Positions 17,719-41,027 of a DNA stretch of 64,000 nucleotides are shown here, in pieces. This stretch comes from Eunapius fragilis. Lineage: Eukaryota > Porifera > Demospongiae > Spongillida > Spongillidae. The DNA is taken from assembly GCA_963681505.1 (NCBI GenBank), contig OY811992.1:5152224-5216223 (forward strand), written 5' to 3'. The notes beneath the pieces were generated by a model. The model did not search any database. It was not told where the DNA came from and saw only the letters and a program-made list of their open reading frames with translations. A program made the position numbers and the translations under genes. Each line of letters opens with the position of its first letter. The first letter of the stretch is position 1.

Positions 17719-18274
17719 TTCTTTGCAAACGCTATCGACCTATCTAATCTACTTGCAGTGAAATCATTATATGACTTTGCTAAGAAAGCTAACAGCTTCT
17801 ACAAATTTCTTGTGAATGTAACCGTGAATGTACTTTTTAATATACCATGGTGGGGGCGGGGGGCTTTAAACACGCACCATTGATGGGGGGCGGAGGGGGC
17901 TTTGCAGCAGGCGGCTGAGTGAAGGTATTTGCGCTTTCTAGTTTTGGGGGGTAGTCTCGCGTGCCATGACGTAATAAATGACGTCTGGAAACATTTCCGT
18001 GTGCAGCAGGAATGTAATTATCAGCTAAGTCAAGTACCGCGGTGTGTCAGCTTAACCACATGTCTGCAAATCTTCGCTGGCGCTTGAAAATTCATGGCAA
18101 AGTACCTACAGCTGAAGCTGCATATGTGAGTGCGTACTATGTACCGTAAAACTGAAGTCATAGGCGTTCATTTCATAATGTAACCAACAGTGACGTGCTA
18201 CGGTATTTAGTTCAAATGGTTAATGAAACTCTCTGCACTGGTATGCCTACAGCTACGGTTATTTTTACCCCTAC

Positions 18275-18544
18275 GTGCCGGGTATGCAAGGCTTGCTCAG
18301 AAGAGTTAGAAAAGTATTAGACCTCAATTCAAAACTCTTCAAGCATAAAGAACTGATTCACCGTCAATTAGTGCAAGCGGAAAACGCAATCTCGAAAGAT
18401 GTCACTCGGTCGATTGCATGCACGTCAGCTACTACTCCCAGTCGTAAAGGGACTATATCTATAGACGAGCAGGATACCGCTCCTGTTCCTAAACGAAGAG
18501 CCAAAAACACTGACTCGCCTTCAGTAAGACGAGCTCTAGATTAA
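18275..18544 (+). pseudogene. Plus-strand ORF of the TIR element, unknown family
   Basis: An open frame containing YVPGMQGLLRRVRKVLDLNS, then a basic stretch (VPKRRAKN) and a terminal VRRALD. Upstream, ATG at 18061 opens MSANLRWRLKIHGK and reaches a GTGAGT donor at about 18127. The acceptor at about 18253 does not keep phase with that exon, so the model is incomplete. I do not recognise the family. Confidence 0.4.
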
Positions 18545-18820
18545 ATGCTTACAAGCACCATACTCTTCCCCTCTCAGGATGTCAAACGCATAGGAAAGAA
18601 GGTGATAGCATAGTGACTTCCCACTTCCAGTTGGAAGGCACACAAATACGTCTCTGCCCTTCAAAAAATTTCGCACAACTGTTCTCTGATTTGGGCGCAA
18701 TTCATTGTAACCCAACTGTTTAGAAACCGTTGCGATAGAGCTGTCAATAGCTTCGTTAGAATACATTACATGTACTGGCATACTCATCACAGATTCACAA
18801 GGTGGGAAATTCCACAGCAT
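18536..18820 (-). pseudogene. RecQ-type helicase N-terminal fragment inside the TIR element
   Basis: The minus-strand frame includes LGYNELRPNQRTVVRNFLKG, then RDVFVCLPTGSGKSLCYHLL (Walker A) and AFDILRGEE, then stops. LR.xQ...V followed by LPTGSGKSLCY is the RecQ/DEAD Q-motif plus motif I. Motifs Ia to VI are missing, so it cannot be active. It differs clearly in sequence from the tlh1-like remnant at 5.5-8.5 kb. Confidence 0.8.
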
Positions 18821-18942
18821 GTAATCCTAGAAAGTCATGTGACCACTCCAATCTGATTAATTGGTAGCGCACAAATTTTGGTGCTAGTACACGGAGTCTC
18901 CAGACGAAATAATTCATTTATTACGTCATGGCACGCGAGACT

Positions 18943-19515
18943 GGGGGGAGGGGAGTTAACTATGAAGTGTAATGAAGTGGGAGTGTCATTTCAATTTTCG
19001 TGAATGTAGCTACACTCGATAAATTAGATCTATTTTTCAGTCTGTTCTCTACAACCTTTACGAACCAGTATATTCTTTGCTTTTGTAAAGATTAATATCG
19101 GTCTATATGCAGTCATAATTTAATCATGCAGCTCAGTTGCTATGAAACTGATACAACCTGACCGCGCTTACAAAAATGAATATAGTTACCAATGTGTATA
19201 TCATCGAACCCTTCTAGCTTCAGTACAGTACCCTCTGCTTGATGTAAGTTTGCTAATCCATTATATCATTTGTACATGTGTTCTGTAAACCAGGCCGCGA
19301 ATGTGGTAATATGACGCGTATAGCCTTTCGAACATACCGCTAGCTAGACTACACACAATCACTGAATCTAGGGTGAATGATAGCTTTATAAAAGTAGTAA
19401 CAAAAATGAGTTTTGAATGGAAAGAAGTGATTTTATTACTATTAATATGGCTTTTGTTGTCGTGTGTACGAACGGATGGGGGTTGTTGCCTCGGGCTAAT
19501 TGAATAATAATTATA
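18943..19515. other. Duplicated non-coding spacer, copy A
   Basis: No gene seen. It is matched by about 32919-33465 in copy B and ends at the foldback insertion site. Confidence 0.6.
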
Positions 19516-21275
19516 TGGGACAGTCTCCGCGAAAATGGCCCTTCGCTATATAATTTTAAAGTTATAAAAATGACTCACGTTTGAATCGCTATAACTTCGT
19601 AACGGTACACGCCATTGACTTCCTATTATCAACACTTCATACTGCACCATTTTTATAAGGTAAAATAGATTTTGGAGTCTTGCATTAGCTTCGTGCCAGT
19701 GTTGCAACGTCCGATACCCCTTGGGGTTCAAACTGGCCATATCTTTCGGCAGGACGTCTCAATTAACTTCAAATTCGGTTTATACGCAGAGGGGTCCTGT
19801 ACCTATCGATGTGCCCTGTTCGTTAATTTTTACTTAATCCGTTACGGAGATACAGCTGTGCAAAGTAATTGCACATTTTTCGTTCATTCCGCGCCATTAA
19901 CCTACTACAACCTGGTTCCCGCTACTCCGAGCACATGAATATACAATAACCTCCCGTGCCCATGCCACTATATTATTAACTAAAGCAGAGATAATTTATC
20001 TCTGACTAAAGTACCACCGCTTCTTACAAACGTCAGTGGTTCTCTTCTATAATGGACAAAATTCGTTAAGCGATCGAAATGTGTGGAATTCAGCTACCGT
20101 CATCATACAAAAAACACGGTACGTATTACCAGTACCGATACGCGCGCACAACATTATGTAGAAATCGTGTCCCTGTCGATTCGATCATACTCTTTGGGTG
20201 CCACTCATTGCGTGGCCATTCATAGGCTTACAACCTATACGTCAGAGCCATGATATATAATGCACGGTGTATCAGCTAGGCTATGGGAGAGGCGTGGTCG
20301 AGTTAAAGACACATGCAGCGCAGCTAGGCTGGAACACATGTAACCTTTCCTTATTGTCGGGATTTGCGTTCTGCTGGCACATATATTTTAAAAGCCCACC
20401 GTTTTTCATTTCATCTGCATGGCTGGCACACACACACACCCATGAACCAACACATACACACGTCTCACGTCACACTTATACACACTCTTTCCACTATTCT
20501 TTCTCCCTTGCTGTACACCCCTGTAAATTGTTATGTGCTACATGGATTCATTCATATAAGCTTTGTCTAGTTGAACTTTTTTTCTATGTATTTCGGTTAC
20601 AGTGCTTTCACTGGCCTACTATACAACTCTCTTTCTCAACTATTTGTATTCTGACTGATGTGTTTTTCACGTGTGTACTGGATTGTGTGTTCTATAAACA
20701 GTGGTATAGGAGCATGGAGGCTATGGGGGCAAAGGCCCCAACAATTTTTTCAGAGGAAGGCCCCCCTCCCAACACCTACCCCATTGGTTGTATGTACTGG
20801 ATTAATGTGTTGTATGTACTGGACTATTTGTTCCTGTCTCACAGTACCTGCCACATCATGACATACCATGCCTCATGTCCCATATTCCATTACATGCATC
20901 CATTTACACACTCACACACTCATATATACACAGCACTCATAACTACATGTATCTCATGCCAATCACTATATATGCTGAAGCTCTGAGAGTGTACCATTGA
21001 GAGGTTAAAAATACTTAGGTCTTACTATTTATTACCATCCTTTGTTATACCAGGGCCCTGATATTTATCTTTTGGGATAAAGCAGGAATAATATTCCTGC
21101 CAGGCTTATATACAAAAGTAGGTCTACTAAAGTCCCTCTTACAGAGTGGTAGATCTACAAGTAACAAATGATAAATAGCACAGATTCCTAGAAGGGGCCC
21201 ATGTATAATGTTATACATACACATGCACACGCACACACACACATACACACACACATACACACACACACATACACA

Positions 21276-21316
<41 letters not shown>

Positions 21317-21835
21317 CAGTGCTACTTAGAAATAGTGGTTCTGGTGGGTATGACTGTCAGTTTATGCAAAGCCACCCATGGAAGTCACCGGCCCATGGAA
21401 TGTTGATTTACATGAGATGGTGGCAAATAGATAGGCTAATGCCTTTGTGTTTAGGACTCTGCAATTAATGAGACATACCGTCACAAACCCACCTGAGGAT
21501 CAGAGCACTTGGTGTCATATTTTATGTCTGTTTTTGGATCTGGGGCAGTGCTGCTCCGACTTACATAGGCTTTTGCATTTGGTCATATGTGTAGCAAACT
21601 TGACAGCCATCCTCATCAGGACCACTAATCCTAAGTAGCATTGAAATTTCCGTGTGTGAGTGTGTGTGTTTGTGTGTGTGTGTGTGTATTTGTGTATGTG
21701 AGTGTGTGTGTGTGTGTGTGTCTACGTAGCATTGGAATCTTTCTTTTGCAATTTATTTTTGTAATGTGTTGACAAGCTACTTCTAGATCTGCTCACCTAG
21801 AGATGGAAGCCTTGCATACAAGCAATAAAGACATT

Positions 21836-22035
21836 CTCTATGAGAAAATTGATGGCATATAGGATTGGAAGGCAAAAGGAAGAAAACAAGGGTCTACTAA
21901 GGGGAAATGTAATACGCACACAGTTGAACAACATAATGTCCTACAAATGTGCTAAATATAGGACTATTACATATTTCCTCTATTGCCTGTCAATCCTATA
22001 TACCAACTTTCTCACAAGTAATGTTTTTATTACTT
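21836..22035. mobile_element. MITE copy 1 (same family as 59869-60100)
   Basis: It begins TATGAGAAAATTGATGGCAT, contains GTGCTAAATATAGGACTATT, and ends near CCAACTTTCTCACAAG. The same terminal and internal words occur in the better-preserved inverted repeat at 59869-60100. It is nested in the centre of the foldback element. Confidence 0.6.
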
Positions 22036-22411
22036 GTTCCATCAGTTCTTTTTCTTCATGAACATAACAAATTTAGAGTATTTGAAATAAGACCATTAGT
22101 GGTGTTACACAGTTTAGCAGGGGTATACTGTGTGGAGGAGGGGGGGGGGGGGGGTGTCTCCTGGATGGAATGGTAAAAAGGGGGAAGGAGATCCCTACGT
22201 AGAAGTGTGACATCTATGGAAGAGGGGGCACCCTGATGTGGAGGAGCGAGGGGCACGTGCTGTGAAGTGGGTGGGGAATCCCATGTGAAAGAGGTGTCTA
22301 TTGGTGGAGATGGAAGCCCTGATGTGGTGGAGCAAGTAGCATGCATCCATTGGTGGCCTACCATTGGTGGAGGTCCAAACGCAGCTTGCTAAGCTTTTTC
22401 AAAGCTACCAT

Positions 22412-22419
<8 letters not shown>

Positions 22420-22499
<80 letters not shown>
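22420..22499. repeat. (GT)n microsatellite, plus C33 at 22767-22799
   Basis: A pure GT run of about 80 bp followed 270 bp later by an uninterrupted poly-C tract of about 33 bp, both in the foldback centre. Such tracts are prone to assembly length error. Confidence 0.9.
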
Positions 22500-22501
<2 letters not shown>

Positions 22502-22766
22502 TGTAGCATTGGTAGGAGGATTTATTTTTTGTGCAAGCTACTTGTGGACAGATGGGAAGCCTTGCATAAGTGGCAGTGAATATTATTGCTTAGCCTTAGC
22601 CTATCTCAAAGATTTGGAAAGACTGGGCCACTGTAGAGTTTATACAGAGAGCATTCACTGACATGGCTTCTATTTACCCATGGGTATACACGCAGTACTG
22701 AGTTGGTACACATGAAGCTTCAGGACCAGTATACAAGAGCACCTTGATGGGGACATGACATTTGAG

Positions 22767-22799
<33 letters not shown>

Positions 22800-25700
22800 T
22801 ATTATTCCAACTCTTTCATGACCACTATCAGCTGAAATAGTGGAGTCTTTAAAACCCTCCCAATTTGAGTACAGTGAATGGTATATGGGACATGTATAGT
22901 GGAGCCTCACGGGGGCCTCTGACAAACGTATTGTGGCATTTGCCCCCCACGACCCCCGTACTTCCTACCCACTGACACCAGTCCAATACATACAACACAC
23001 AGTCCAGTTGCATGTGTGAAACACATCCACATCAGTGACATGGAGGCCTTTGCACATGACCATGTAGAGGAGGCCATGGGATATGAGCATACAGTGGAGG
23101 GCATGAGTCTGACAAGACATACTACCATTTTGTGCTGATACAATTATGACCACTAAAGAAATAGAGGGTAATGTTACTTGCACATGTAGGACCAAACATA
23201 AAGAGAATGAATCTGAATATAAACATAACAAAAATAGTTGAGAAAGAGGTTGTATATTAGGCCAGTGAAAGCACTGTAACCCAAAAAAAAGTTCAAATCG
23301 ACAAAGCATATGAGTGAATCTATGTAGCACACAACATAACAATTTACAGGGTTTACAGCTAGGGGAAAAGAATAGTGTCTTATGGTGGAAAGAGTGTGAA
23401 TAGTCATGACATGAGACGTGTGTATTTTCATGGGTGTGGTTCATGGGTGTGTGTGCCAGCCGTGCAGATGAAATGAAAAATGGTGGGTGTTATATGTGCC
23501 AGCAGAACGCATATCCCAACAATAAGGAAGGGTTACATGTGTTCCAGCCTGCATGTGTCTTTAACTCGACCACGCCTCTCCCATAGCCTAGCTGATGCAC
23601 CGGGCACTATATCTCATGGCTCTGATGTATAGGTTGTGAACCTATAAATGGCCACGCAATGAGTGGCACCCAAAGAGTATGACCGAATCGACAGGGACAC
23701 GATTTCTACATGCTGTTGTGCGCGCGTATCGGTACTGGTAGTACGTACCGTCCAATCCTTGTCAACATATTACAAAAATAAATTGCACATTCTCCAAGAA
23801 AGAAAGGTTCCAATGCTACACACACACAAACACCCACACACACACACACACACACACTGAAATTCCAATGCTACGTACAAGAAGAATTAGTGGTTCTGGT
23901 GAGGATGACTGGCAAGTTTGTTGCTACACATATGACCAAATGCAAAAGCCTATGGAACTCACAGGTCTGTAACATGTTTGGAAGCAGCACTGCACCAGAT
24001 CCAAAAACAGACATAAAATATGACACCAAGTGCTGTGATCCTCAGAGGGTTTGTGACGGTATGTCTCATTAATTGCAGAGTCCTAAACACAACATCTCAT
24101 GTAAATCAACATTCCATGGGTGACTTCCATGGGTGGCTTTGCATCTGGTCATAGCAAACTGACAGTCATACCCACCAGAACCATTATTTCTAAGTAGCAC
24201 TGGTTTGTGTATGTGTGTGAGTGTGTGTGTGTATGTGTGTGTGTGTGTGCATGTGCGTGTGTATGAAAAGCATTATACATGGGCCCCTTCTAGGAATCTG
24301 TGTTTTTTATCTTTTGTGATATTACTTGTAGATCTACCACTCTGTAAGAGGGACTTTACTGGACCTACTTTTGTATATAAGCCCAGCAGGAACATTATTC
24401 CTGCTTTATTCCAAAAGATATAGATCAGGGCCCTGGTATAACAAAGGATGGTAATAAATAGTAAGACCATAGATAAAAGTATCTATGGTAAGACCTAAGT
24501 CTTTTTAAACCTCTCAATGATACACACTCAGAGCATCAGCATATATAGTGATTGGCATGAGATACATGTAGTTGTGAGTGCTGTGTATATATGAGTGTGT
24601 GAGTGTGTAAATGGATGCATGTAATGGAATATGGGACATGAGGCATGGTATGTCATGATGTGGCAGGTACTGTGAGACAGGAACAAATAGTCCAGTACAT
24701 ACAACACATTAATCCAGTACATACAACCAATGGGGTAGGTGTTGGGAGGGGGGCCTTCCTCTGAAAAATTTTTTGGGGCCTTTGCCCCCATAGCCTCCAT
24801 GCTCCTATACCACTGTGTATAGAACACACAATCCAGTTACACGTGAAAAACACATCAGTCAGAATACAAATAGTTGAGAAAGAGGGTTGTATAGTAGGCC
24901 AGTGAAAGCACTGTAACCGAAAGACATAGAAAAAAAGTTCAACTAGACAAAGCTTATGAGTGAATCCATGTAGCACATAACAATTTAAAGGGTGTACAGC
25001 AAGGGGGAAAGAATAGTGGAAAGAGTGTGTATAAGTGTGACGTGAGACGTGTGTATGTGTTGGTTCATGGGTGTGTGTGTGCCAGCCATGCAGATGAAAT
25101 GAAAAACGGTCCGGTGGGCGTTTAAAATATATGCGTTTAAAATATATGTGCCAGCAGAACGCAAATCCCGACAATAAGGAAGGGTTACATGTGTTCCAGC
25201 CTAGCTGCGCTGCATGTGTCTTTAACTCGACCACGCCTCTCCCATAGCCTAGCTGATACACCGTGCACTATTTATCATGGCTCTGACGTATAGGTTGTGA
25301 GCCTATGAATGGCCAGGCAATGAGTGGCATCCAAAGAGTATGACCGAATCGACAGGGACACATAATGTTGTGCGCGCGTATCGGTACTGGTAATACGTAC
25401 CGTATTTTTTGTATGGTGACGATAACTGAATCCCACACATTTCGATCGCTTAACGAATCTTGTCCATTACAAAAGAGAACCACTGACGTTTTTAAGAACG
25501 GTGGTACTTCAGTTGTACCATAGATACTATGGTTGTACAGGTTAATACAATGGCATGGGCACGGGAGGTTATTGTATATTCATGTGCTCGGAGTAGCGGG
25601 AACCAGGTTGTAGTAGGTTAATGGCGCGGAATGAACGAAAAATGTGCAATTACTTTGCACAGCTGTATCTCCGTAACGGATTAAGTAAAAATTAACGAAC

Positions 25701-26123
25701 AGGGCACATCGATAGGTACAGAACCCCTCTGCGTATAAACCGAATTTGAAGTTAATTGAGACGTCCTGCCGAAAGATATGGCCAGTTTGAACCCCAAGGG
25801 GTATCGGACGTTGCAACACTGGCACGAAGCTAATGCAAGACTCCAAAATCTATTTTACCTTATAGAAATGGTGTAGTATGAAGTGTTGAAAATAGGAAGT
25901 CAATGGCGTGTACCGTTACGAAGTTATAGCGATTCAAACGTGAGTCATTTTTATAACTTTAAAATTATATAGCGAAGGGCCATTTTCGCGGAGACTGTCC
26001 CATATATATATATATATCCAGTAGTTTTCAGATATATCATTTACACACATACGGCTTTCACATATAAAAAACACACATGGTAGAATGAAAATGGTTGCAG
26101 TGTATGCTAAGGGTGGAGTTGGC

Positions 26124-27245
26124 TTAGCAGACTCCGTTGATAGCAACAGTACAAACGCAGCGTATGCGTCTGATTACCGGTTGGCTCATGTATATTATTT
26201 TCGAGGAGCCGTCTTCTTTGCATTCGAATGATTTAGTGGGAGTTGTTGCGCGGTCGCTATCTGGTACACAGCAGAGTGTTAATCCATCTCTGTTGCATTC
26301 ACTTTCACAGTATGCCTGCTTCAGAGGCTCGGTTAATAAACAGCTGTAATTATGGCCATCGGCTTTGTAATTTCGCGGTTCAAAACTTAGAACTGTGGTC
26401 TTATTGCACGTGGCTACGATATAGCATTAAGAAGCTAAATAAAATAAACAATATATGTATGCGGACGGGTTTCTTACCATTTGTCGACACGTTAGGTAAT
26501 GCGTCTGGTGCTGGTGGCTATGTGTAGAAGGAGCATATGGTGTTGATGTAAACTATTTTCGTTAAAACTTACAGTAGCGAAAGGGGTCACAGGTGGACAC
26601 TGTTGGAATGTGATATTCCTGTTAACCAGTGACTCACGGTAGCGGAATACGATAGTGTACCTTTTGCGCAAATGGCGATACGTTAATAATATCTCCAGTG
26701 GGGCAAAATATGTTTCGCATACCTGAACATAATTGAGCCGAAATCTGGAGCTTTGTAATTGACTTGGATGGAATTTGCATTTAGAATGGACCTGGAAAGG
26801 AAAATTGATGTTAAATACGCATTTAATTCCTTCGTAGTGGTCTTTTCCATGCCTGTGTGAAATAGTGTTCTTATCGCACGGGCCCTGAGCTAGGTTTTGG
26901 CCAAGCAGAATCCCTTGGTTAGGTGCAGGCAGCGCTCCTACATTAGACTGTAGTAGAATTCCAGTGAAACACTTGCTTCCATTGACCACCACTGCACAAG
27001 AGAATCGAAGATGTCAAACGCGACATAGTATTTATACCAATGCAGATGAACTCACCTGTGTACGTCTGACCAGGCAGATAGCAGGTGACAGCCTGGTCTT
27101 CCTTCAGCAAGGATATCTTGACGGTACTGGTCGAAGGTATGGATTCGGGGTGGCCGGTATCGAATGACTCGCACATAGCGTACGGAGGGCCCGTACTAAA
27201 CCCTGCGCATGCTTGCACCATCAAGAACAGAATTGCAAAAAACAT
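26124..27245 (-). CDS. Secreted Reeler-domain protein, copy A
   Basis: Exon 1 (27245-27056) has a signal peptide (MFFAILFLMVQACAG) then STGPPYAMCESFDTGHPES, the typical start of a Reeler domain. Exon 2 (26991-26853) has VVNGSKCFTGILLQSNVG, like the family's FKGFLLQA core, and NTISH. Exon 3 (26791-26723) has NANSIQVNYKAPDFGSIMF, like the conserved W/Y-K-A-P...F end. Phase requires a GC donor after exon 2 (CACAG|GCATGG). A short exon 4 (26660-26638) may add YTIVFRY. A Cys-rich frame ending in a stop (26343-26124) is phase-compatible with exon 3 and contains YCESECNRDGLTLCCVPDSD. Reeler proteins are extracellular and some are defence-related. The 3' exon choice is uncertain. Confidence 0.7.
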
Positions 27246-27302
27246 TTTTCTAAGTTGGGCCCGAGTAAAACTTTACAGCTGTTACGGACTGCGCACGCTT
27301 AC

Positions 27303-27312
27303 CTTTTTATAC
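27303..27312 (-). promoter_or_regulatory. TATA box of Reeler gene copy A
   Basis: The minus strand reads GGGTATAAAAAGG about 60 bp upstream of the ATG at 27245. The same element is conserved in copy B at about 34747-34756. Confidence 0.55.
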
Positions 27313-29139
27313 CCGCCAGCAGCCCCTATAACGTGTTTATGAGGTCATTGCTCTAAAATTTCCATGCACCTGAAGACCGCAACGATTGTAAAGCTAATTT
27401 TCACGCATTACTCATTCACGATACACAAAAAAAGGTTTGATCGTGTCAGCGCATAAAACTACTGTACAATATTTTTTTTGTCGACCGCCATTATATGTCT
27501 ATGTAGCATACAGGCTAAGTGCAGCCGCTTTTGTTTCAAAATGTCGAATTTAACAATTTTACTGGCCACAAAAATGGTATACTGCACACACACACACAGA
27601 TAAACAATACACGTCATTCTCCATCATCTCTAGATGCTGTCTGCTGCTGTCGTTCAAGGACAGTCTCAAGATGTTTCTGCATCCTTCTGTGCCTCTCATT
27701 TCCTGACCCGGACTCAATACCAATACTCCTCTTTGCATAAGTGCTCCCAAGTCCTGTTCGTTCGTCATGTACCTCAGCCAGAACCTATTGACACAAAACC
27801 TAATAATAACTCATCTACCTTCAAAGTCCCTACAGACTTGCACTAAACCTACACAAACCACAGGGATGTAGAAGAGCCTCAGGGGTCAATGCTTAACTAG
27901 AGTGATCTCACCGCTCATCCCCTCTTGCTAAATACATCAGCCCCTTTTAAAGTTCATGGGACAGCAGCATTCTTGGAAGGCCACTACAGGGCAGGTGGGT
28001 TGTTGGTTGTTTAATATATTGTACTTCTCTCCTCCCCAGACCAGCTCTTTGCCTTATATAAACATGCCCTTCCCAGAACATCTCATTATTACGGTTCCTT
28101 GTGGGAGGAATAGAACAGAAAATTACTGAATATTACTGCGGGTGTGGTTGCCAGGGCAGCGGAAATGTGGAAGCATGAGGAAAATGATGCTAAATGCACT
28201 GAACTTGGCTGGATGTGTGTCTCCCTTTGCTTGGCTGGATGTGTGTCTCCCTTTGCTTGGGGTGTCGATGCTTTTTAATGCTTTCTTGTTTTTGGCAAGG
28301 CGTGAAGCCATCACCTACCCCATGGATGTTATGCTACAGACTACACATGTTACAATAATTATGACCATCTAGCTAGCTAACTGCACACACAAAAATGCGT
28401 TCATTTTGTTAATGCCCTTGCTTTGTGATCCACCTGGGTTGGATCACTATCCAATAAATAACATTCCTTGCAGCAAATTCTGCTGATGTGTGAGCAACAA
28501 CTCTCTCATGTTACTTGATCATGTCCATAAAAGGAGCTGCAAAGTCATACTTTAAATTCAGGTTTGCACAGTTGTGACACACGGACGACACACACAGGGC
28601 ACACACATGAACACACAGCCATAAACACCACACCGGCCCTAGTCACAAATTGTCATCACTGTTAGAATACACTGCCATGTAATGGGCACACACACACATG
28701 GAGTGAGTCATCAATGTGTGGAGGACAGCAAAGGGGCCTCTTTATGGACAACCCCCCACATATCCTCCCCCACACAAACTTCAAAAGAGATGAGTCATTA
28801 CTCCTCTGTGATCAATATTTAATTAATTTGCCAATTCCAAATATTCAATTACTAAATTCACTAATCACAGTGTTTAATCCGATAATAATAGCAAAGGTAT
28901 TTATTCCTTCAAGCAGCCTATAATCTCATCAGAACTATTAGTATGCCACATCAATGTAACAATGGTCACCATCCCACTCAGAGTCCTTAACAGTTAACTG
29001 AGTGCATGCAGCACTATGGATCACCCTGGGGCGATCAGTGTGTCTAGCAGAACAACATAACTCTTAGTACGGCTACCATTACGAACATAATCCCTTATGG
29101 TTGAATTACGTTTGTTAATATTTGAGAGGGGCTCTGTGA

Positions 29140-30405
29140 ACCTACCTATATAAACCCCCACCCTCACACTCCCCACCCTCACACTCCCCACTCCCTCCTC
29201 CCCATCCTCACACTCCCCACTCTCTCCTCCCCATCCTCACACTCCACCCTCCCCACCCTCACACTCCCACCCTCACACTCCCTCCTCACCCTCACTCCCA
29301 CCCTCACACTCCCTCCTTCCCACCCTCACACTCCCCACTCCTCCTCCCCACCCTCACACTCCCAACTCTTTCCTCCCCACCCTTACACTCCCTCCTCCTC
29401 CACCCTCACACTCCCTCTTCCCCACCCTCACACTCCCTCCTCCCCCACCCTCACACTCCCACCCTCACACTCCCTCCTCGCCACCCTCACATTCCCTCCT
29501 CTCCACCCTCCACTTCCTCCTCCCCACCCTCACACTCCCACCCTCACACTCCCTCCTTCCCACCCTCACACTCCACCACTCCCTCCTCCCCTACCCTCAC
29601 ACTCCCCCACTTCACACTCCCCCACTCCCTCCTCCCCTACCCTCACCTCCCCACTCCCTCCTCCCTCACCCTCACACTCCCCACTCCCTCCTTCCCCACC
29701 CTCACACTCTCCCACTACCTCCTCCCCACCCTCACACTCTCCCACTCCCTCCTTCCATTACCTCTGGAAAGCTCTATCAGTGTTCTGATCTGGCAGCTGC
29801 TGTGACTCTTCAAGTGTGTCCTTAAGCTGTAGAGGGTGAGGAAAGAGGGAACAGGGAGAGGGAAGGAGGAGGGAGAGGGAAGGAGGAGGAGGGAAGAAGG
29901 AGGGAGGGGGAAGGGAGGAGGGAGAGGGAAGGAGGAGGGAGGGGAAGGGAGGAGGGAGAGGGAAGGGAGGAGGGAGGGAAGGAGGAGGGAGAGGGAAGAA
30001 GGGAGAGGGAAGTAGGGGTGAGGGAAGGAGGAGGAAAGGGAAGGAGGAGAGATGAGGAAGGACAGTGAAGACCATACCACATAGCCAACATGAAGGAGGG
30101 ACCTTACATGGGGGCGGGGCAGAGCTGGGGCCTATCAAACTGCAAAACAACATTTTAACTCATACACATGTGCAACCTTTAGCTAAAGAGTATACGGACG
30201 TGTGGTTTACAGATCTCAAGCATACAATCACCACACACACCATCACCACACACACCATCACCACACACACCATCACCACACGCACCATCACCACACACAC
30301 CATCACCACACACACCATCACCACACACACCATCACCACACACACCATCACCACACACACACCATCACCACACACACCATCACCACACACACCATCACCA
30401 CACTG
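29140..30405. repeat. Compound simple repeats between the copy A AGGF1 exons
   Basis: 29140-29760 is a degenerate CCCACCCTCACACTCCCTCC repeat. 29830-30060 is GGAGGGAGAGGGAAGGA purine-rich. 30230-30405 is a 15-bp ACCATCACCACACAC array. All recur in copy B (about 38250-38390, 38460-38625, 38790-39008) with different lengths. The ORFs rich in HHT, VVM or SPSS here are repeat artefacts. Confidence 0.9.
29762..29826 (-). pseudogene. Duplicated AGGF1 65-nt exon in copy A
   Basis: It encodes [20 protein letters not shown] with intact CAG acceptor and GTAATG donor, matching the copy B exon 38394-38458 with an N for Y change. No G-patch exon follows in copy A, so this is part of a truncated AGGF1 duplicate. 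Confidence 0.7.
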
Positions 30406-30879
30406 TCCCAACATCACTAACACCCGAGAACATTCAAAACTTGGGTTAGCCTCAAGTACAGTAGCAGCTCATTTATAAGGTAAACTAGCACATCAGCTTT
30501 TCAGGAAAAAATAACTAACAAGTACATTTCACCTGCAACTGCAGGCGATGTGCCACGTGATCTACGGGCATGTAAGCATTGAATTTCTTTACACAGTTTG
30601 CTAAGTTCTGGTTATTTTTCCTGAAAAGTATGTGCTAATTACCTTATAAATGAGCCGCGCTAATCAAAAGCTTGTATCAACAATGCGGTTGCTAAGTCAA
30701 CAGACAAGTTTTCCTCCTTGTCACTATCCACACATCACAATACCTCCCTCACAGTAGTCAGTTACCACACCTATCTCACCTGCACTCCTAGCTACCACTC
30801 ACTCAATGTAGTCCATAGCTACCACACACTTCCCCCCCTCACCAGTAGTCATAACTACCACACCCCTCCCCTCCCTCAC

Positions 30880-31095
30880 CCTAAGTCCATACAGCTTCTT
30901 TATCCTGTTCAGCTCTTTCCTTCTCTGCACGTCCAGTGGTTCAGCACTATCGGCTGCACTGTTGGAGCTGGTTAGCTCGGGGTTACACCCATCACATGTC
31001 TCCCTTCCACTGTGGATGTGCACGCTGAAGGTGGTGTTACCTAGCCTCAACCTGTCCCCATGGTTGAGAGGGGTGGGGTCACTGTCATGTTTAGG
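30880..31095 (-). pseudogene. Duplicated AGGF1 FHA-end exon in copy A
   Basis: A 216-nt open exon with intact splice sites. It encodes [20 protein letters not shown], then [16 protein letters not shown] and [15 protein letters not shown]. It is nearly identical to copy B exon 39551-39766; here the C-D-G-C motif is kept, which in copy B reads C-D-E-C. It lies beyond the 3' end of AGGF1 and could only be used by read-through or alternative splicing. Confidence 0.75.
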
Positions 31096-31310
31096 CTACA
31101 CCAAAAGAAAAAGAGGTGTGGATAGGTAAATAAAATGGTGGCCACACCTCATCTCACATCTGTTCATTAGAGGCATAGCTTTGGCCAGGTATAATATTTC
31201 CACAAACAGTTGTATTATCTTAAGACAAGAACCTGGAACAGAGGTTAGAATTATTGGCAACCACTGACTTGTCCCATGATCACATAAGTGTTCTGACAAG
31301 TGACCACTAA

Positions 31311-31546
31311 ATCAAGCGATCGCGCTATTAGGAAATATATTTAGGGCTTAGGGTTTAAGGTGTTAAGGGGGGCCAAAGGCTCGCTTCGGGAATCAACTTT
31401 TCACCCCTGTTACGAATCCGACCTCCAATTTCACCTGTCCCTCCCTCCCGACACTCTTCATTGAAAATATTTAACCTAGCTCCCCCTTAATGGTTAGACT
31501 CACCGCCATCTTTGTGGACGAGGACGCCTGTGGCGCTGTACCCTAA
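31311..31546. mobile_element. About 236-bp insertion specific to copy A
   Basis: Copy B reads GTGACCACTAACTGTGGCAT without interruption (about 39970). Copy A has GTGACCACTAA, about 236 bp, then CCCTAACTGTGGCAT. CTAA on both sides looks like a 4-bp target-site duplication. No terminal inverted repeats or coding capacity are seen. It could be a SINE- or MITE-like piece. Confidence 0.65.
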
Positions 31547-32158
31547 CTGTGGCATGGTTGTTAAAAGGTTGCCATGGTTGTTAAAAGGTTGCCATGGTTG
31601 TTAAAAGGTTGCCTATGGAGGACTGCACACCAAGTCCATGGTACTAGGGAGGAGGGAGGTACTGTGGAAGAGTACTGGGGAGGAGGGAGGTACTGGGGAA
31701 GAGTACTAGGGAGGAAGAAGTGCTGTGGAAGAGTACTGAGGAGGAGGGAGGTACTGGCTCCAGAGGTAAGAGGCATACAATAGGAGAGGCGTACAAGGAA
31801 GAACCAGAATCATACGTGCTTTCTACATGGTGAAGCTGTAGCTAACAAACCAACTACCTCCCCTTCCTCCCCTCCTCCTCTCACAGGTCTCTTCCCTCAT
31901 ATCACCTTCTCATCTCTTGTGAATGTAACCACAAACGTTTTCTGCGTACCTTTTAATGTACCGCAGTACTGAGAGAGAAGTAACCATTTCATTTCCTGAA
32001 ATGTTGGAACAGATCGGTTTAAACACACACCATTGATGGGGGAGGGGGGGGGGGTGGAGAGCCAGGAGAGGGGCTTTAAACATGCACCATTGATGGGGGA
32101 TGGAGGGGGCTTTATGGCAGGCTGCTGAAGGTGTTTGTATTTTCTAGTTGGGGGGGTG

Positions 32159-32918
32159 AAGTCTCGCGTGCCATGACGTAATAAATGAGATATTTACGTC
32201 TGGAAATATTTCCGTGTGCAGCAGGAATGTAATTATCAGACAAGTCACATGCCAAGAATGTATTTAGTACCGGTGTGTCAGCTTAACCACGTGTCTGCAA
32301 ATCTTCGCTGGCGCTTGAAATTCACGGCAAAGTGAATGTGAGTGCGTACTATGTACCGTAAAACTGCAGTCATAGGCGTTCACTTCATAATGTAGCCAAC
32401 AGTGACGTGCTACGGTATTTAGTTCAAATGGTTAATGAAACTCTCTGCACTGGTATGCCTACAGCTACGGTTATTTTACCCCTACGTGCCGGGTATGCAA
32501 GGCTTGCTCAGAAGAGTTAGAAAAGTATTAGACTTCAGGTTCAAAACTCCTCAAGCATAAAGAACTGATTCACTATCAATTAGTGCAAGCGGGAAACGCA
32601 ATGGGCTATTCCATTACTTAACCGTACACCCCTACAGATGACAATAATTGCAAACGTACCCCCCCGGGACAATATATAAAAGCACCCTGGACAAGCTTAT
32701 ATTATATCTCCACCTCCCCGGGACATACTTGTATTGTAACCCAACTGTTTAGAAGCTGTTGCGATAGAGCTTTCAATAGCTTCGTTAGAATACATTACTG
32801 GCATACATTCACAAGGTGGGAAACTCCACAGCATGTAATCATAGATAGTCATGTGACCACTCCAATCTGATTGATTACACCCAGCATTTATTACGTCATG
32901 GCACGCGATTCGGTTAAG
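32159..32918. mobile_element. TIR element B, internally deleted sibling of 17953-18942
   Basis: The left end (GTCTCGCGTGCCATGACGTA ... ATTTACGTCTGG) and right end (ATTTATTACGTCATGGCACG) match element A. The interior keeps the start of the plus-strand ORF with frameshifts and only traces of the helicase region (for example the complement of QLGYN near 32742). Confidence 0.7.
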
Positions 32919-33573
32919 CTATGAAATGAATGAAGTGGGCGTGTCATTTCAATTTTCGTGCATGTAGATCTATTTTTCAGTCTGTTCTCTACAACCTTTA
33001 CGAACCAGTATATTCTTTGCTTTTGTAAAGTTTATTAATATCGGTCTATATACAGTCATAATTTAATCGTGCAGCTCAATTGCTATGAAAACTGATACAA
33101 CCTGACCGCGCTTACAAAAATGAATATAGTTACCAATGTGTACGCTCTATTTTCTCTATCATCGAACCCTTCTAGCTTCAGTACAGTACCCTCTGCTTGA
33201 TGTAAGTTGGTTTGCTAATCCATTATATCATTTGTACATGTGTTCTGTAAACCAGGCCGCGAATGTGGTAATATGACGCGTATAGCCTTTCGAACATACC
33301 GCTAGCTAGTCTACACACAATCACTGAATCTAGGGTGAATGGTAGCTTTATAAAAGTAGTAACAAAAATGAGTTTTAATGGAAAGTGGTTTTATTTCTAT
33401 GGCTTTTGTTGTCGTGTGTACGAACGGATGGGGGTTGTTGCCTCGGGCTAATTGAATAATAATATACCAGTAGTTTTCAGATATATCATTTACACACATA
33501 CGGCTTGCACATATAAAAAAACACACATGGTAGAATGAAAATGGTTGCAGTGTATGCTAAGGGTGGAGTTGGC

Positions 33574-34689
33574 TTAGCAGACTCCGTTGCTAGCAACAGT
33601 ACAAACGCAGCGCATGCGTCTGATTACCGGTTGGCTCATGTATATTATTTTCGAGGAACCGTCTTCTTTGCATTCGAATGATTTAGTGGGAGTTGTTGCG
33701 CGTTCGCTATCTGGTACACAGCAGAGTGTTGATCCATCTCTGTTGCATTCACTTTCACAGTATGCCTGCTTCAGAGGCTCGGTTAATAAACAGCTGTAAT
33801 TATGGCCATCGGCTTTGTAATTTCGCGGTTCAAAACTTAGAACTGTGGTCTTATTGCACGTGGCTACGATATAGCATTAAGAAGCTAAATAAATAAACAA
33901 TACATGTATGCGGACGGGTTTCTTACCATTTGTTGACACGTTAGGTAATGCGGCTGGTGCTGGTGGCTATGTGTAGAAGGAGCATATGGTGTTGATGTAA
34001 ACTATTTTCGTTAAAACTTACAGTAGCGAAAGGAGTCACAGGTGGACACTGTTGGAATGTGATATTCCTGTTAACCAGTGACTCGCGGTAGCGGAATACG
34101 ATAGTGTACCTTTTGCGCAAATGGCGATACGTTAATAATATCTCCAGTGGGGCATAATATGCTTCGCATACCTGAACATAATTGAGCCGAAATCTGGAGC
34201 TTTGTAACTGACTTGGATGGAATTTGCATTTAGAATGGACCTGGAAAGGAAAATTGATGTTAAATACGCATTTAATTCCTTCGTAGTGGTCTTTTCCATG
34301 CCTGTGTGAAATAGTGTTTTTATCGCACGGGCCCTGAGCTAGGTTTTGGCCAAGCAGAATCCTATGATTAGGTGCAGGCAGCGCTCCTACATTAGACTGT
34401 AGTAGAATTCCAGTGAAACACTTGCTTCCATTGACCACCACTGCACAAGAGAAGATGTCAAACGCGACATAGTATTTATACCAATGCAGATGAACTCACC
34501 TGTGTACGTCTGACCAGGCAGATAGCAGGTGACAGCCTGGTCTTCCTTCAGCAAGGATATCTTGACGGTACTGGTCGAAGGTATGGATTCGGGGTGGCCG
34601 GTATCGAATGACTCGCACATAGCGTACGGAGGGCCCGTACTAAACCCTGCGCATGCTTGCACCATCAAGAACAGAATTGCAAAAAACAT
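33574..34689 (-). CDS. Secreted Reeler-domain protein, copy B
   Basis: Paralogue of the copy A gene with the same signal peptide and Reeler motifs (exon 1 starts at 34689; STGPPYAMCESFDTGHPES; exon 2 VVNGSKCFTGILLQSNVG, with PNHR for PNQG). The terminal Cys-rich frame (33793-33574) is also open, with about four amino-acid changes from copy A (for example L to S and I to S), all cysteines kept. The possible exon 4 donor GTGAGT of copy A is GCGAGT here, so that exon may not be spliced in the same way. TATA is conserved at about 34747. Confidence 0.7.
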
Positions 34690-35449
34690 TTTTCTAAGTT
34701 GGGCCCGAGTAAAACTTTACAGCTATTACGGACTGCGCACGCTTACCTTTTTATACCCGCCAGCAGCCCCTATAACGTGTTTATGAGGTCATTGCGCGCT
34801 GAGGTTACCTTCTAAAATTTCCACCTGAAGACCGCAACGATTGTAAAGCTAATTTTCACGCATTACTCAATACACAAAAAAGGTTTGATCGTGTCAGCAC
34901 ATAAAACTACTGTACAATATTTTTTTGTCGACCGCCATTATATGTCTATGTAGCATACAGGCTAAGTGCAGCCGCTTTTGTTTCAAAATGTCGAATTTAA
35001 CAATTTTACTGGCCACTAAAAATGGTATACTGCACACGCACAGAGATAAACAATACACGTCATTCTCCATCATCTCTTGATGCTGTCTGCTGCTGTCGTT
35101 CAAGGACAGTCTCAAGATGTTTCTGCATCCTTCTGTGCCTCTCATTTCCTGACCCGGACTCAATACCAATACTCCTCTTTGCATAAGTGCTCCCAAGTCC
35201 TGTTCGTTCATCATGCAACTCAGCCAGAACCTATTGACACAAAACCTAATAATAACTCATCTACCTTCAAAGTCCCTACAAACTTGCACTAAACCTACTA
35301 ACATCACAGGGATGTAATATACTTAAAGAGAAGCCTCAGAGGGTCAATGCTTAACTAGAGTGATCTCACTGCTCATCCCCTCTTGCTAAATACATCAGCC
35401 TCCTCTGGTCATTTAAAGTTCATGGGACAGCAGCATTCTTGGAAGGCCA

Positions 35450-37085
35450 CTACAGGGTGGGTTGTTTAATATATTGTACTTCTCTCCTCCCCAGACCAGC
35501 TCTTTGCCTTATATAAACATGCCCTTCCCAGAACATCTCATTTATTACACTCCTTGTGGGAGGAATAGAACAGGGTAATAAAATTACTGAACATCAGTGA
35601 AAAGAATACCAAGAAAAGCCACAGAAGGGAAGAAAGGGGTTAAGTGATGTCGTGGAAAGGAAATGTGGGAGTGAATACACACAGCCCCATAGGACGTTTG
35701 ACCTTTATAACCTAACCCCATTTATAACCTAACCCCATAGACACATTACAGGTACGACTCTGAAGCCACTAGTATTGGATATTCACCTAATACCAAGGCA
35801 CAGGGAGGGAGGGGAGGGGGCCCAGAGGTGGTACAGGGAGGGAGGGGAGGGGGCCCAGAGGTGGTACAGGGAGGGAGGGGAGGGGGCCCAGAGGTGGTAC
35901 AGGGAGGGAGGGGAGGGGGCCCAGAGGTGGTACAGGGAGGGAGGGGAGGGGGCCCAGAGGTGGTACAGGGAGGGAGGGGAGGGGGCCCAGAGGTGGTACA
36001 GGGAGGGAGGGGAGGGGGCCCAGAGGTGGTACAGGGAGGGAGGGGAGGGGGCCCAGAGGTGGTACAGGGAGGGAGGGGAGGGGGCCCAGAGGTGGTACAG
36101 GGAGGGAGGGGAGGGGGCCCAGAGGTGGTACAGGGAGGGAGGGGAGGGGGCCCAGAGGTGGTACAGGGAGGGAGGGGAGGGGGCCCAGAGGTGGTACAGG
36201 GAGGGAGGGGAGGGGGCCCAGAGGTGGTACAGGGAGGGAGGGGAGGGGGCCCAGAGGTGGTACAGGGAGGGAGGGGAGGGGGCCCAGAGGTGGTACAGGG
36301 AGGGAGGGGAGGGGGCCCAGAGGTGGTACAGGGAGGGAGGGGAGGGGGCCCAGAGGTGGTACAGGGAGGGAGGGGAGGGGGCCCAGAGGTGGTACAGGGA
36401 GGGAGGGGAGGGGGCCCAGAGGTGGTACAGGGAGGGAGGGGAGGGGGTCCAGAGGTGGTACAGGGAGGGAGGGGAGGGGGCCCAGAGGTGGTACAGGGAG
36501 GGAGGGGAGGGGGCCCAGAGGTGGTACAGGGAGGGAGGGGAGGGGGCCCAGAGGTGGTACAGGGAGGGAGGGGGGGGGGGGCAGAGGTGGTACAGGGAGG
36601 GACGGGAGGGGGCCCAGAGGTGGTACAGGGAGGGACGGGAGGGGGCCCAGAGGTGGTACAGGGAGGGACGGGAGGGGGCCCAGAGGTGGTACAGGGAGGG
36701 AGGGGAGGGGGCCCAGAGGTGGTACAGAAGAGCATATAGACAAAGGAGTTTGTACATACTGGTTCAGTGATTCCAGCGCTGCTCTTCCCCAGACCTTCTC
36801 CCGTCTTCCATCCCATCTTCTCAAGCATGACCCTGCCCAAATTACCACCAGATATTGGTCTGGGGAGGGGTTTAGAGGTAACATGTCACTTACATGTGCC
36901 CAAGTTGAAAGGTCATGCCAAGTGGTACACCTCTCATCAAGATTCCGACACACCCCAGTTTGTTGCCATGCCAATCATCAGCGGTTTTGACACCCAATGC
37001 TGTTTAATTGTCCCGGTTAGTGGGCAGTCTTCCTTGTTAGCACGCACACACACACACACACCTGTGCCCAGAACTGGGTCACACA

Positions 37086-37139
<54 letters not shown>

Positions 37140-37220
37140 TACACACACATACACACACACCTGTGCACAGAACTCCTGCGCCCAGAACTGGGTCACACAC
37201 ACCTGTGCACAGAACTGGGT

Positions 37221-37251
<31 letters not shown>

Positions 37252-40200
37252 GTGCACAGAACTCCTGTGCCTAGAACTGGGTCACACACACACACACACA
37301 CACACATACACACCTGTGCACAGAACTGGGTAGATCATCTTGAATGTGAGAATCCGGTGGAACACTCCCCACAGTGACACGTCTGGAGAGGAGGAGGAAA
37401 ACATCAAAGGCTTATAAGTACCATGGATACCACCAGCCCATGGATGTTACGCATATTGCAATAATTATGACCATCTAGCTAACTGCACACACAAAAATGC
37501 GTTCATTTTGTTAATGCCCCTGCTTTGTGATCCACCTGGGTTGGATCACTATCCAATAAATAACATTCCTTGCAGCAAATTCTGCTGATGTGTGAGCAAC
37601 TCTCTCATGTTACTTGATCATGTCCATAAAAGGAGCTGCAAAGTCGTACTTTAAATTCAGGTTTGCACAGTTGTGACACACGGACACACACAGGGCACAC
37701 ACATGAACACACAGCCATAAACACCACACCGGCCCTAGTCACAAATTGTCATCACTGTTAGAATACACTGCCATGTAATGGGCACACACACACATGGAGT
37801 GAGTCATCAATGTGTGGAGGACAGCAAAGGGGCCTCTTTATGGACAACCCCCCACATATCCTCCCCCACACAAACTTCAAAAGAGATGAGTCATTACTCC
37901 TCTGTGATCAATATTTAATTAATTTGCCAATTCCAAATATTCAATTACTAAATTCACTAATCACAGTGTTTAATCCGATAATAATAGCAAAGGTATTTAT
38001 TCCTTCAAGCAGCCTATAATCTCATCAGAACTATTAGTATGCCACATCAATGTAACAATGGTCACCATCCCACTCAGAGTCCTTAACAGTTAACTGAGTG
38101 CACGCAGCACTATGGATCACCCTGGGGCGATCAGTGTGTCTAGCAGAACAACATACCTCTTAGTAGGACTACCATTACGAACATAACCCCTTATGGTTGA
38201 ATTAAGTTTGTTAATATTGGAGGGGCTCTGTGAACCTACCTATATAAACCCTCATACTCCCCCACCCTCACACTCCCTCCTCCTACTACACTCCCCCACT
38301 CCCTCCTCCCACCCTCACACTCCCTCCTCCCCACCCTCACACTCCCCCACTACCTCCTCCTCACCCTCACTCCCCCACTCCTCCTTCCATTACCTCTGGA
38401 AAGCTCTATCAGTGTACTGATCTGGCAGCTGCTGTGACTCCTCGAGTGTGTCCTTAAGCTGTGGAGGGTGAGGAAAGAGGGAACAGGGAGAGGGAAAGAG
38501 GAGGGAGAGGAAAGGAGGGGGAGGGAAGGAGGAGGGAGAGGAAAGGGGGACGTGAGGGAAGGAGGGAGAGGGAAGGAGGGAGAGGGAAGTAGGAGGAAAG
38601 GGAAGGAGGAGGGATGAGGAAGGACAGTGAAGACCATACCACATAGCCAACATGAAGGAGGGACCTTACATGGGGGCGGGGCAGAGCTGGGGCCTATCAA
38701 ACTGCAAAACAACATTTTAACTCATACACATGTGCAACCTTTAGCTAAAGAGTATACGGACGTGTGGTTTACAGATCTCAAGCATACAATCACCACACAC
38801 ACCATCACCACACACACCATCACCACACACACCATCACCACACGCACCATCACCACACACACCATCACCACACACACCATCACCACACACACCATCACCA
38901 CACACACCATCACCACACACACCATCACCACACACACCATCACCACACACGCCATCACCACACACACCATCACCACACACACCATCACCACACACACCAT
39001 CACCACACTGTCCCAACATCACTAACACCCGAGAACATTCAAAACTTGGGTTAGCCTCGAGTACAGTAGCAGCTCATTTATAAGGTAAACTAGCACATCA
39101 GCTTTTCAGGAAAAAATAACTAACAAGTACATTTCACCTGCAACTGTAAGCGATGTGTCACGTGATCAACGGCATTGAATTTCTTTACACAGTTTCCAGA
39201 TAAGTTCCTGAAAAGTACGTGCTAATTACCTTATAAATGAGCCACGCTAATTAAAAGCTTGTATCAACAATGCGGTTGCCTAAGTCAACAGATTTTGGGA
39301 ACATGTTTTCCTCCTTGTCACTCACTATCCACACATCCCTCACAGTAGTCATAGTTACCACACACCTCCCTCCCTCACCTGCAGTCGTAGCTACCACACC
39401 CCTCACCTCTAGTCCATAGCTACCACGCATCTACCCCCTCACCGGTAATCATCACTACCACACACCTCCCCCCTCACCTCTAGTCCATAGCTACCACACA
39501 CTTCCCCCCTCACCAGTAGTCATAACTACCACACCCCTCCCCTTCCTCACCCTAAGTCCATACAGCTTCTTTATCCTGTTCAGCTCTTTCCTTCTCTGCA
39601 CGTCCAGTGGTTCAGCACTATCGGCTGCACTGTTGGAGCTGGTTAGCTCGGGGTTACACTCATCACATGTCTCCCTTCCACTGTGGATGTGCACGCTGAA
39701 GGTGGTGTTACCTAGCTTCAACCTGTCCCCATGGTTGAGAGGGGTGGGGTCACTGTCATGTTTAGGCTACACCAAAAGAAAAAGAGGTGTGGATAGGTAA
39801 ATAAAATGGTGGCCACACCTCATCTCACATCTGTTCATTAGAGGCATAGCTTTGGCCAGGTATAATATTTCCACAAACAGTTGTATTATCTTAAAACAAG
39901 GAACCTGGAACAGTGGTTAGAACTATTGGCAACCACTGACTTGTCCCATGATCGCACAGGTGTTCTGACAAGTGACCACTAACTGTGGCATGGTTGTTAA
40001 AAGGTTGCCATGGTTGTTAAAAGGTTGCCATTGTTGTTAAAAGGTTGCCTATGGAGGACTGCACACCAAGTCCATGGTACTAGGGAGGAGGGAGGTACTG
40101 TGGAAGAGTACTGGGGAGGAGGGACGTACTGGGGAAGAGTACTGAGGAGGAGGTAGTGTGGAAGAGTACTGGGGAGGAGGGAGGTACTGGGGAAGAGTAC

Positions 40201-41027
40201 TGAGGAGGAGGAGGTAGTGTGGAAGAGTACTGGGGAGGAGGGAGGTACTGGGGAAGAGTACTGAGGAGGAGGAGGTACTGTGGAAGAGTACTGGGGAGGA
40301 GGGAGGTACTGGCTCCAGAGGTAAGAGGCATACAATAGGAGAGGGGTACAAGGAAGAACCAGAATCACACGTGTTTTCCACATGGTGAAGCTGTAACTAA
40401 CAAACCAACTACCTCCCCTTCCTCACCTCCTCCTCTCACAGGTCTCTTCCCTCGTATTACCTGGAGGCCTCATATCACCTCCTCCCTCAGAGGCCTCATC
40501 TCACCTCCTCCCTCAGAGGCCTCATATCACCTCCTTCCATCAGAGGCCTCATCTCACCTCCTCCCTCAGAGGCCTCATATCACCTCCTTCCATCAGAGGC
40601 CTCATATCACCTCCTCCCTCATATCACCTTCTTATATCACCCTCTTCTTACTGCCTCCCTCCCTTCAAGAGCTCACCTCACTGAGCCTGTTATCATTCAA
40701 AAAGGTGCCATTTCTGCTTCCTCTGTCAATCACCACGAAGCCACCTCTTCTTCTATCATATTTGATGTCCAAGTGTTCCTTACTAACTTGTATCTCAGGC
40801 AAGAGTATAGCCCTACCCCCAGAGACCTCCCTGAGGGGAGAGGTCTGTATCAAATGGGAGGGGCCAATGGGGGCAAGTACCAGTATGGAGCACAGATGAT
40901 CTGGGGGCACTCCCACATGGTACCTGCACATGTAGCTACACATATGTTGTGGTCAACACCACCACCTATGACTACAACCCAGTGCTTTCTCTCACTCACT
41001 CACTCGCTCACTCACTCACTCACTCAC

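What the first reader, a model, noticed from the sequence alone, without database searches (positions are those of the whole stretch)
19516..26002. 6.5-kb giant inverted-repeat insertion with its empty site preserved in a tandem paralogue
The two arms (about 2.25 kb each, TGGGACAGTCTCCGCG at both outer ends) are mirror images, and the duplicated locus at about 33465 lacks the element. This gives direct evidence of insertion into an AT-rich TATA target after the segmental duplication. No known transposase is seen in it. This size of arm with a degraded third arm copy in the centre is unlike ordinary MITEs and fits a foldback element. The 239- and 202-codon arm frames need testing as possible coding sequence.
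Basis: partly seen in the sequence, partly recalled or inferred. Interest (0 to 1): 0.75.

Follow-up and report, generated by a model that had tools for sequence, protein, structure and literature searches.

The report
Giant-armed transposon and its transposase relatives
The 6.5-kb mirror-image block is one of many copies of a mobile DNA element that carries no enzyme of its own and is very probably moved by a transposase encoded by larger relatives in the same genome, whose key domain was listed only as 'unknown function'.

Summary
Window 19517-26001 (6,485 bp) has two inverted arms of about 2.2 kb (88% with gaps, 94.6% ungapped), a third arm piece (23224-23751), and an empty site in the tandem paralogue at 33462-33465. 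It is a family: 172 termini genome-wide, reversed-pattern control 0; of the 100 listed, 36 facing pairs, 36 with matching 4-mers, 22 of 5.9-6.7 kb. The arm frames are not coding. An apparent autonomous relative (C5, 8,356 bp) shares the outer 383 bp at 90% and encodes a 991-codon frame with Pfam DUF7869 and C2H2 fingers; sister elements of 16.4-16.5 kb encode a protein 88.5% identical to it, under purifying selection (dN/dS 0.19). AWWT duplications fit the Sola2 superfamily, but homology to a Sola2 transposase could not be tested. Long arms arose at least twice by inverted duplication of one element end. Ends sit head to head across AT-rich gaps at 98 places, control 0. Best reading: a non-autonomous, Sola2-like, giant-armed transposon moved in trans by a DUF7869 transposase.

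The parts
19517..26001 (+). non-autonomous giant-armed DNA transposon, GGGACAG...CTGTCCC, 6485 bp
19513..19516 (.). left target site duplication ATAT
26002..26005 (.). right target site duplication ATAT, followed by (AT)n
19517..21687 (+). left arm
   Evidence: self-alignment
23822..26001 (-). right arm (inverted)
   Evidence: self-alignment
19517..19898 (+). outer terminal segment shared with the DUF7869-encoding element on C5 (90%) and with the sister coding element (79-80%)
25620..26001 (-). same outer terminal segment, right end
23224..23751 (-). third, diverged arm piece, present also in the 10 other copies compared
22555..22643 (+). interior 89-bp stretch about 76% identical to the sister family's 3' non-coding region
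   Evidence: E 4e-11 to L038, 5e-10 to L039
20261..20983 (+). arm frame of 241 codons, not coding
24656..25267 (-). arm frame of 204 codons, not coding
33462..33465 (.). unoccupied ATAT target in the tandem paralogue

Best explanation
The block is a non-autonomous cut-and-paste-type DNA transposon that arose by inverted duplication of one terminal part of a larger transposon and then spread as a unit. It is moved in trans by a DUF7869 transposase (probably a DDD enzyme, Sola2-like) encoded by relatives in the same genome. The enzyme recognises the outer roughly 385 bp, or part of it, makes a 4-bp staggered cut at AWWT, prefers ATAT and (AT)n, and therefore often inserts next to the ATAT duplications of its own kin, giving head-to-head neighbours. 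Shown: repeated family, termini, 4-bp duplications, empty site, outer 383 bp shared with a coding element, purifying selection on the transposase gene, head-to-head junctions. Inferred: mobilisation in trans, the catalytic triad, and, for the window element, the way its arms were made.
For: 172 termini genome-wide at up to 2 mismatches, reversed control 0; of the 100 listed, 36 facing pairs under 30 kb, 36 of 36 with equal 4-mers, 7 of 7 non-ATAT ones, 22 of 36 sized 5.9-6.7 kb. The 15 two-ended elements examined by sequence (13 of this family, C5 element, L038) all have equal 4-mers, such as AAGT, ATTT, AAAT. C5 element: same termini, arms of about 874 bp inside the element (887 columns at 99.7% with the AT flank), outer 383 bp 90% identical to the window arms, 991-codon frame with DUF7869. 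Sister family: 127 termini, control 0, 32 of 34 listed facing pairs with equal 4-mers; its 891-codon frame is 88.5% identical to the C5 protein over 783 aa, dN 0.052 and dS 0.281 over 760 codons. Giant-armed sister element L038 is for most of its length an imperfect palindrome of the 3' part of the 16-kb element. AWWT duplications are reported for Sola2 (PMC3627910 passages). 98 head-to-head junctions, control 0.
Against: Beyond the outer 383 bp the window element shares with a fetched coding relative only an 89-bp stretch and two matches of 27-34 bp, so its direct parent was not found. The DUF7869 accession was my recollection, then supported by position; only one of its 90 matches lies in a listed terminus pair of exactly this family. 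Pairs that do not fit: L025, a rearranged copy whose two termini lie 1.7 kb apart, has ACAT and ATAT, and 2 of 34 sister pairs disagree. No movement was observed.
Confidence: 0.82

Rival explanations
1. A true Foldback-like element in its own right, with the long arms as recombination substrates (hairpins, cruciform repair) rather than transposase substrates, and no link to a DUF7869 enzyme.
For: Arm length, third arm piece and an imperfect palindromic plan; the two arms of L014 and of L019 group together in the arm tree, as if homogenised within the copy.
Against: 4-bp AWWT duplications and sharp GGGACAG termini in 36 of 36 listed facing pairs, and the same terminus on elements with a conserved transposase gene.
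Confidence: 0.08
2. The mirror arms are an assembly artefact or a local inverted segmental duplication rather than a mobile element.
For: Inverted repeats of this size can be misassembled; the window holds other segmental duplications.
Against: Same architecture at unlinked places on many contigs, with matching duplications at each examined place, and an empty paralogous site.
Confidence: 0.02
3. Same element, but another superfamily with 4-bp duplications supplies the transposase, and the DUF7869 gene on C5 is a passenger.
For: Only one DUF7869 gene was seen inside a listed terminus pair of exactly this family; other superfamilies with 4-bp duplications exist (recalled).
Against: The sister family carries a closely related gene in three elements of 16.4-16.5 kb with a related terminus, under purifying selection; two element types share gene and terminus.
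Confidence: 0.08

Closest known systems
Sola2 superfamily DNA transposons (as in Dictyostelium fasciculatum and Polysphondylium pallidum; PMC3627910, passages seen)
   Same: 4-bp AT-rich AWWT duplications (ATAT, AAAT, ATTT); elements that encode the transposase beside others that lost it
   Different: those TIRs are 12-21 bp; here about 385 bp shared and up to 2.2-kb arms; transposase homology untested
Galileo (P superfamily), Drosophila (PMC4168063, passages and section 10)
   Same: very long TIRs, recruitment of internal sequence and of part of the transposase ORF into the TIR, many defective copies
   Different: P-superfamily transposase; the paper calls ORF recruitment so far unique to Galileo, whereas here a DUF7869 element shows it
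Pineapple Ac-mMITEs (PMC8449440, abstract and outline seen)
   Same: insertion preference for (TA)n and frequent adjacent insertions (46.1% clustered)
   Different: MITEs related to Mutator, with 9/10-bp duplications outside microsatellites
MULEs with multiple long TIRs (PMC3310237, abstract and outline seen)
   Same: long TIRs and extra TIR copies that amplified
   Different: plant Mutator superfamily, extra TIRs mostly in tandem rather than inverted

Membership tests
Sola2 superfamily | 4-bp AWWT target duplication | tested here: met
   36 of 36 listed facing pairs, 7 of 7 non-ATAT; exceptions AGTT and AAGT keep the A and T; rearranged L025 disagrees; feature taken from PMC3627910
Sola2 superfamily | Sola2-type transposase in the autonomous partner | not testable with these tools
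   partner has DUF7869; no Sola2 reference sequence at hand; NCBIfam gave one weak hit far below cut-off (ISNCY, E 0.023) and the PDB only zinc fingers
Sola2 superfamily | DDD catalytic triad (recalled) | tested here: inconclusive
   D550, D629, D671 of the C5 protein recur in both 891-codon frames; D629 is kept in the distant L029 frame; the other two equivalences were judged by eye only
Foldback-like (long inverted arms) | kilobase-scale inverted arms making up most of the element | tested here: met
   two 2.2-kb arms of 6,485 bp
Foldback-like (long inverted arms) | arms built of short tandem subrepeats, as in Drosophila FB (recalled) | not tested
   microsatellite runs seen in the sequence; no subrepeat scan was run
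MITE | short (under about 800 bp) non-autonomous element (recalled) | tested here: not met
   6,485 bp
Elements mobilised by a DUF7869 transposase | terminus shared with a DUF7869-encoding element | tested here: met
   383 columns at 90% with the C5 element

The most novel reading that the evidence does not exclude
A self-reinforcing cycle: a DUF7869 transposase prefers ATAT, every insertion makes two new ATAT sites, so kin insert head to head; such inverted neighbours are natural precursors of composite elements whose outer ends are used and whose inner ends are lost, and this keeps producing giant-armed non-autonomous elements (window family, L038 family) and elements whose TIR overlaps their own transposase gene (C5).
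Probability: 0.25. Interest if true: 0.7.

Novelty: new variant of a known kind. Interest (0 to 1): 0.52.

Why it matters
It gives a domain of unknown function (DUF7869; no paper with that name in the one search of the held library) a likely role as the transposase of large transposons. It shows formation of long inverted arms outside the P and Mutator superfamilies, including a TIR that overlaps the transposase gene. One genome holds elements of about 250 bp, giant-armed 6-7-kb elements and 8-16-kb coding elements with the same or a related terminus, so the origin of foldback-like elements could be tested directly.

Tried and rejected
Arm frames as genes: rejected. Two long-spaced pairs as autonomous copies: the C8 13-kb pair holds a gypsy-type retrotransposon frame and the C18 22-kb pair holds unrelated sequence including kinase-like frames, both recognised by eye from translations; the withheld N stretches there were left alone, so coding content under them is unknown. 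Other long pairs (such as C2 9.8, 11.5 and 15.1 kb, C6 21.7 kb, C4 24.6 kb) were not fetched. Transposase remnants in the window element: none at E 0.01. Rfam at gathering scores: no match in the window. Viral contigs for close relatives of the transposase: none. PDB by sequence: three weak zinc-finger hits only. Paper searches 'Sola2' + 'sponge' and 'DUF7869' found nothing. Five neighbouring frames gave no Pfam match above cut-off. The organism was not identified. A structure prediction of the transposase was not attempted because its locus did not come from a tool that the predictor's rule names.
Full report
Where it lies. The window is G000:C22:5152224-5216223 of a 219-Mb genome in 24 contigs, held without a name. 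The organism was not identified; genome size and protein types point to a eukaryote, probably an animal (inference).

The observation. Self-alignment gives inverted arms 19512-21687 and 26006-23822 at 88.1%, 94.6% without gaps over 2,100 columns with 185 gap columns; 0 of 20 shuffles of the left arm matched. A third arm piece lies at 23224-23751 and is present in all 10 other copies that I compared, so it belongs to the family plan and is not decay of this copy. The locus is within a tandem segmental duplication: 26012-28133 matches 33462-35594 at 94.7% and 18704-19511 matches 32733-33463 at 82.8%. The joined flanks align with the paralogue along their length, with scattered substitutions, small gaps on the left and 17-18 extra bases of AT repeat at the insertion point. 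This supports insertion after the duplication; exact excision from the paralogue cannot be excluded.

Termini and target. In copies lying outside (AT)n the two flanks agree over four bases next to GGGACAG: AAGT (L010), ATTT (L018), AAAT (L024, L026), ATAT (L019, L021/L022). I checked 15 two-ended elements by sequence, all 15 with equal 4-mers: 13 of this family, the C5 element and L038. Left out of that count: the C18 pair L011/L013 (ATAT on both sides by the list); L016, L027 and L028, of which one end is missing or unread in the fetched stretch; and L025, a rearranged copy whose two termini are 1.7 kb apart with ACAT and ATAT, which disagree. Genome-wide the terminus pattern has 172 matches at up to 2 mismatches, control 0. 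The list showed 100 of the 172; among these, 36 facing pairs under 30 kb all agree in their 4-mer, including 7 of 7 that are not ATAT; 22 of 36 are 5.9-6.7 kb and 14 are shorter or longer.

Copies. In a tree of the outer 1.5 kb of both arms of 11 copies, arms do not separate by side (6 changes against 7.7 in shuffles, 78 of 500 as low). The two arms of L014 and of L019 group with each other at starred support, and those of L020 more weakly; window and L009 group arm by arm at starred support, L015, L017 and L018 more weakly. Identity between the arms of one copy is 96.3-99.8%; between copies it averages 97.8-98.0%. The simplest reading is that arms are homogenised within a copy from time to time and diverge later. 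The nearest of the compared copies to the window copy is L009 on C7, 98.6% identical without gaps over 6,351 columns.

Not coding. The two arm frames are the same phase of the two window arms and start with similar peptides, which is the best argument for coding. But they have no Pfam match at E 0.1, and all 27 and 29 other arm rows that cover at least 85% of them carry stops and frameshifting gaps.

The partner. I recalled PF25273 (DUF7869) as a candidate for Sola2-type transposases and searched it; it gave 90 matches in this genome and none in 14 control genomes. One match, with a 991-codon open frame, lies inside a terminus pair of this family, C5:193739-202094, 8,356 bp, ATAT on both sides. 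That element has arms of about 874 bp (887 columns at 99.7% with the AT flank), its outer 383 bp is 90% identical to the window arms, and its arm ends inside the transposase frame: the first ATG is at L035 870 and the arm reaches 1113, and the far arm repeats that N-terminal part inverted. The protein has DUF7869 at 574-752 and C2H2 fingers at the C-terminus.

The sister family. Its terminus has 127 matches, control 0. Of the 100 listed, 34 facing pairs under 35 kb; 32 of 34 have equal 4-mers, two do not (C4 ATGT/ATAT and C20 ATAT/AATT); 17 of 34 are 6.8-7.6 kb. Three pairs of 16.4-16.5 kb (on C3, C6 and C7) contain 891-codon DUF7869 frames. The C3 and C7 proteins differ at one residue; against the C5 protein dN is 0.052 and dS 0.281 over 760 codons, the acidic N-terminal 230 codons being left out, so the gene has been under purifying selection. 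The member L038 (7,454 bp, ATAT), in which one search reported no DUF7869 match, is for most of its length an imperfect palindrome: its right part matches the 3' part of the 16-kb element, and its left part is the same region inverted, with about 1 kb missing. Thus one end of a parent element was duplicated in inverted orientation. The right end of the C3 element was cut off in the fetched stretch, so its right terminus is known only from the pattern match.

Link of the window element to this clade. Outer 383 bp, terminus and duplication, an 89-bp interior stretch (22555-22643) about 76% identical to the 3' non-coding part of the sister element, and two matches of 27-34 bp. The direct parent of the 2.2-kb arms was not found among the fetched stretches, so for this element the arm-forming step is inferred from its relatives.

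Head-to-head insertions. CTGTCCCAWWT and AWWTGGGACAG face each other within 30 bp at 98 places, control 0. With 1,345 and 1,351 AWWTGGGACAGT sites (control 458 and 450), uniform placement would give about 0.3. For the exact terminus of the window family it is 18 of 135 ends. Among the 100 sites listed, 18 facing pairs are 208-255 bp apart, 11 of them 246, so small elements with the same terminus exist. The window copy has no such neighbour, but (AT)n follows its right side. A preference for ATAT explains this, since each insertion makes two new ATAT sites. A similar habit is reported for pineapple Ac-mMITEs (abstract).

Mechanism. Most likely a transposase made by an 8- or 16-kb relative binds the terminal region, cuts, and inserts with a 4-bp stagger at AWWT. 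Giant-armed forms arise when one end is copied inverted, by template switching during gap repair (as discussed for Galileo, section 10 of PMC4168063) or from two inverted neighbours that act as a composite. The transposase's role, the catalytic aspartates and the route of arm formation are inferred.

Known or new. AWWT duplications are those reported for Sola2 (passages); Sola2 is reported as a less represented superfamily in bivalves (PMC10294476 passages). Membership is not claimed because transposase homology could not be tested; I call it Sola2-like. The shape is Foldback-like. ORF recruitment into a TIR was called unique to Galileo in 2014; here it occurs in a DUF7869 element.

Noticed in passing
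L025:3809-8248 (C19) and L021:4638-7401 onward (C8): Gypsy-type retrotransposon frame with integrase before reverse transcriptase in the L025 copy (Pfam: Integrase_H2C2 627-684, rve 700-796, RVT_1 1098-1257), an order I recall as Gmr1-like; by eye a similar frame lies inside a copy of this family on C8.
   Followed up: partly
genome-wide, list (100 of 2,696 sites): 18 facing AWWTGGGACAGT pairs 208-255 bp apart, 11 of them exactly 246: a likely MITE family with the same terminus.
   Followed up: partly
L015 and L017 (C15 and C7): Two copies on different contigs have identical outer 1.5-kb arms, suggesting recent movement.
   Followed up: no
L016 and L015 on C15, about 16 kb apart: Two very similar copies in the same orientation; L016 is interrupted by a 200-base N run at 6556-6755.
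   Followed up: no
window 17860-31907 against 32070-40462: Tandem segmental duplication in several blocks at about 83-95% identity.
   Followed up: partly
window 35797-36727: Minisatellite with 66-bp period, open in several frames.
   Followed up: no
L029: A more distant DUF7869 gene in several pieces, as if with introns, perhaps another transposon family or a host gene.
   Followed up: no
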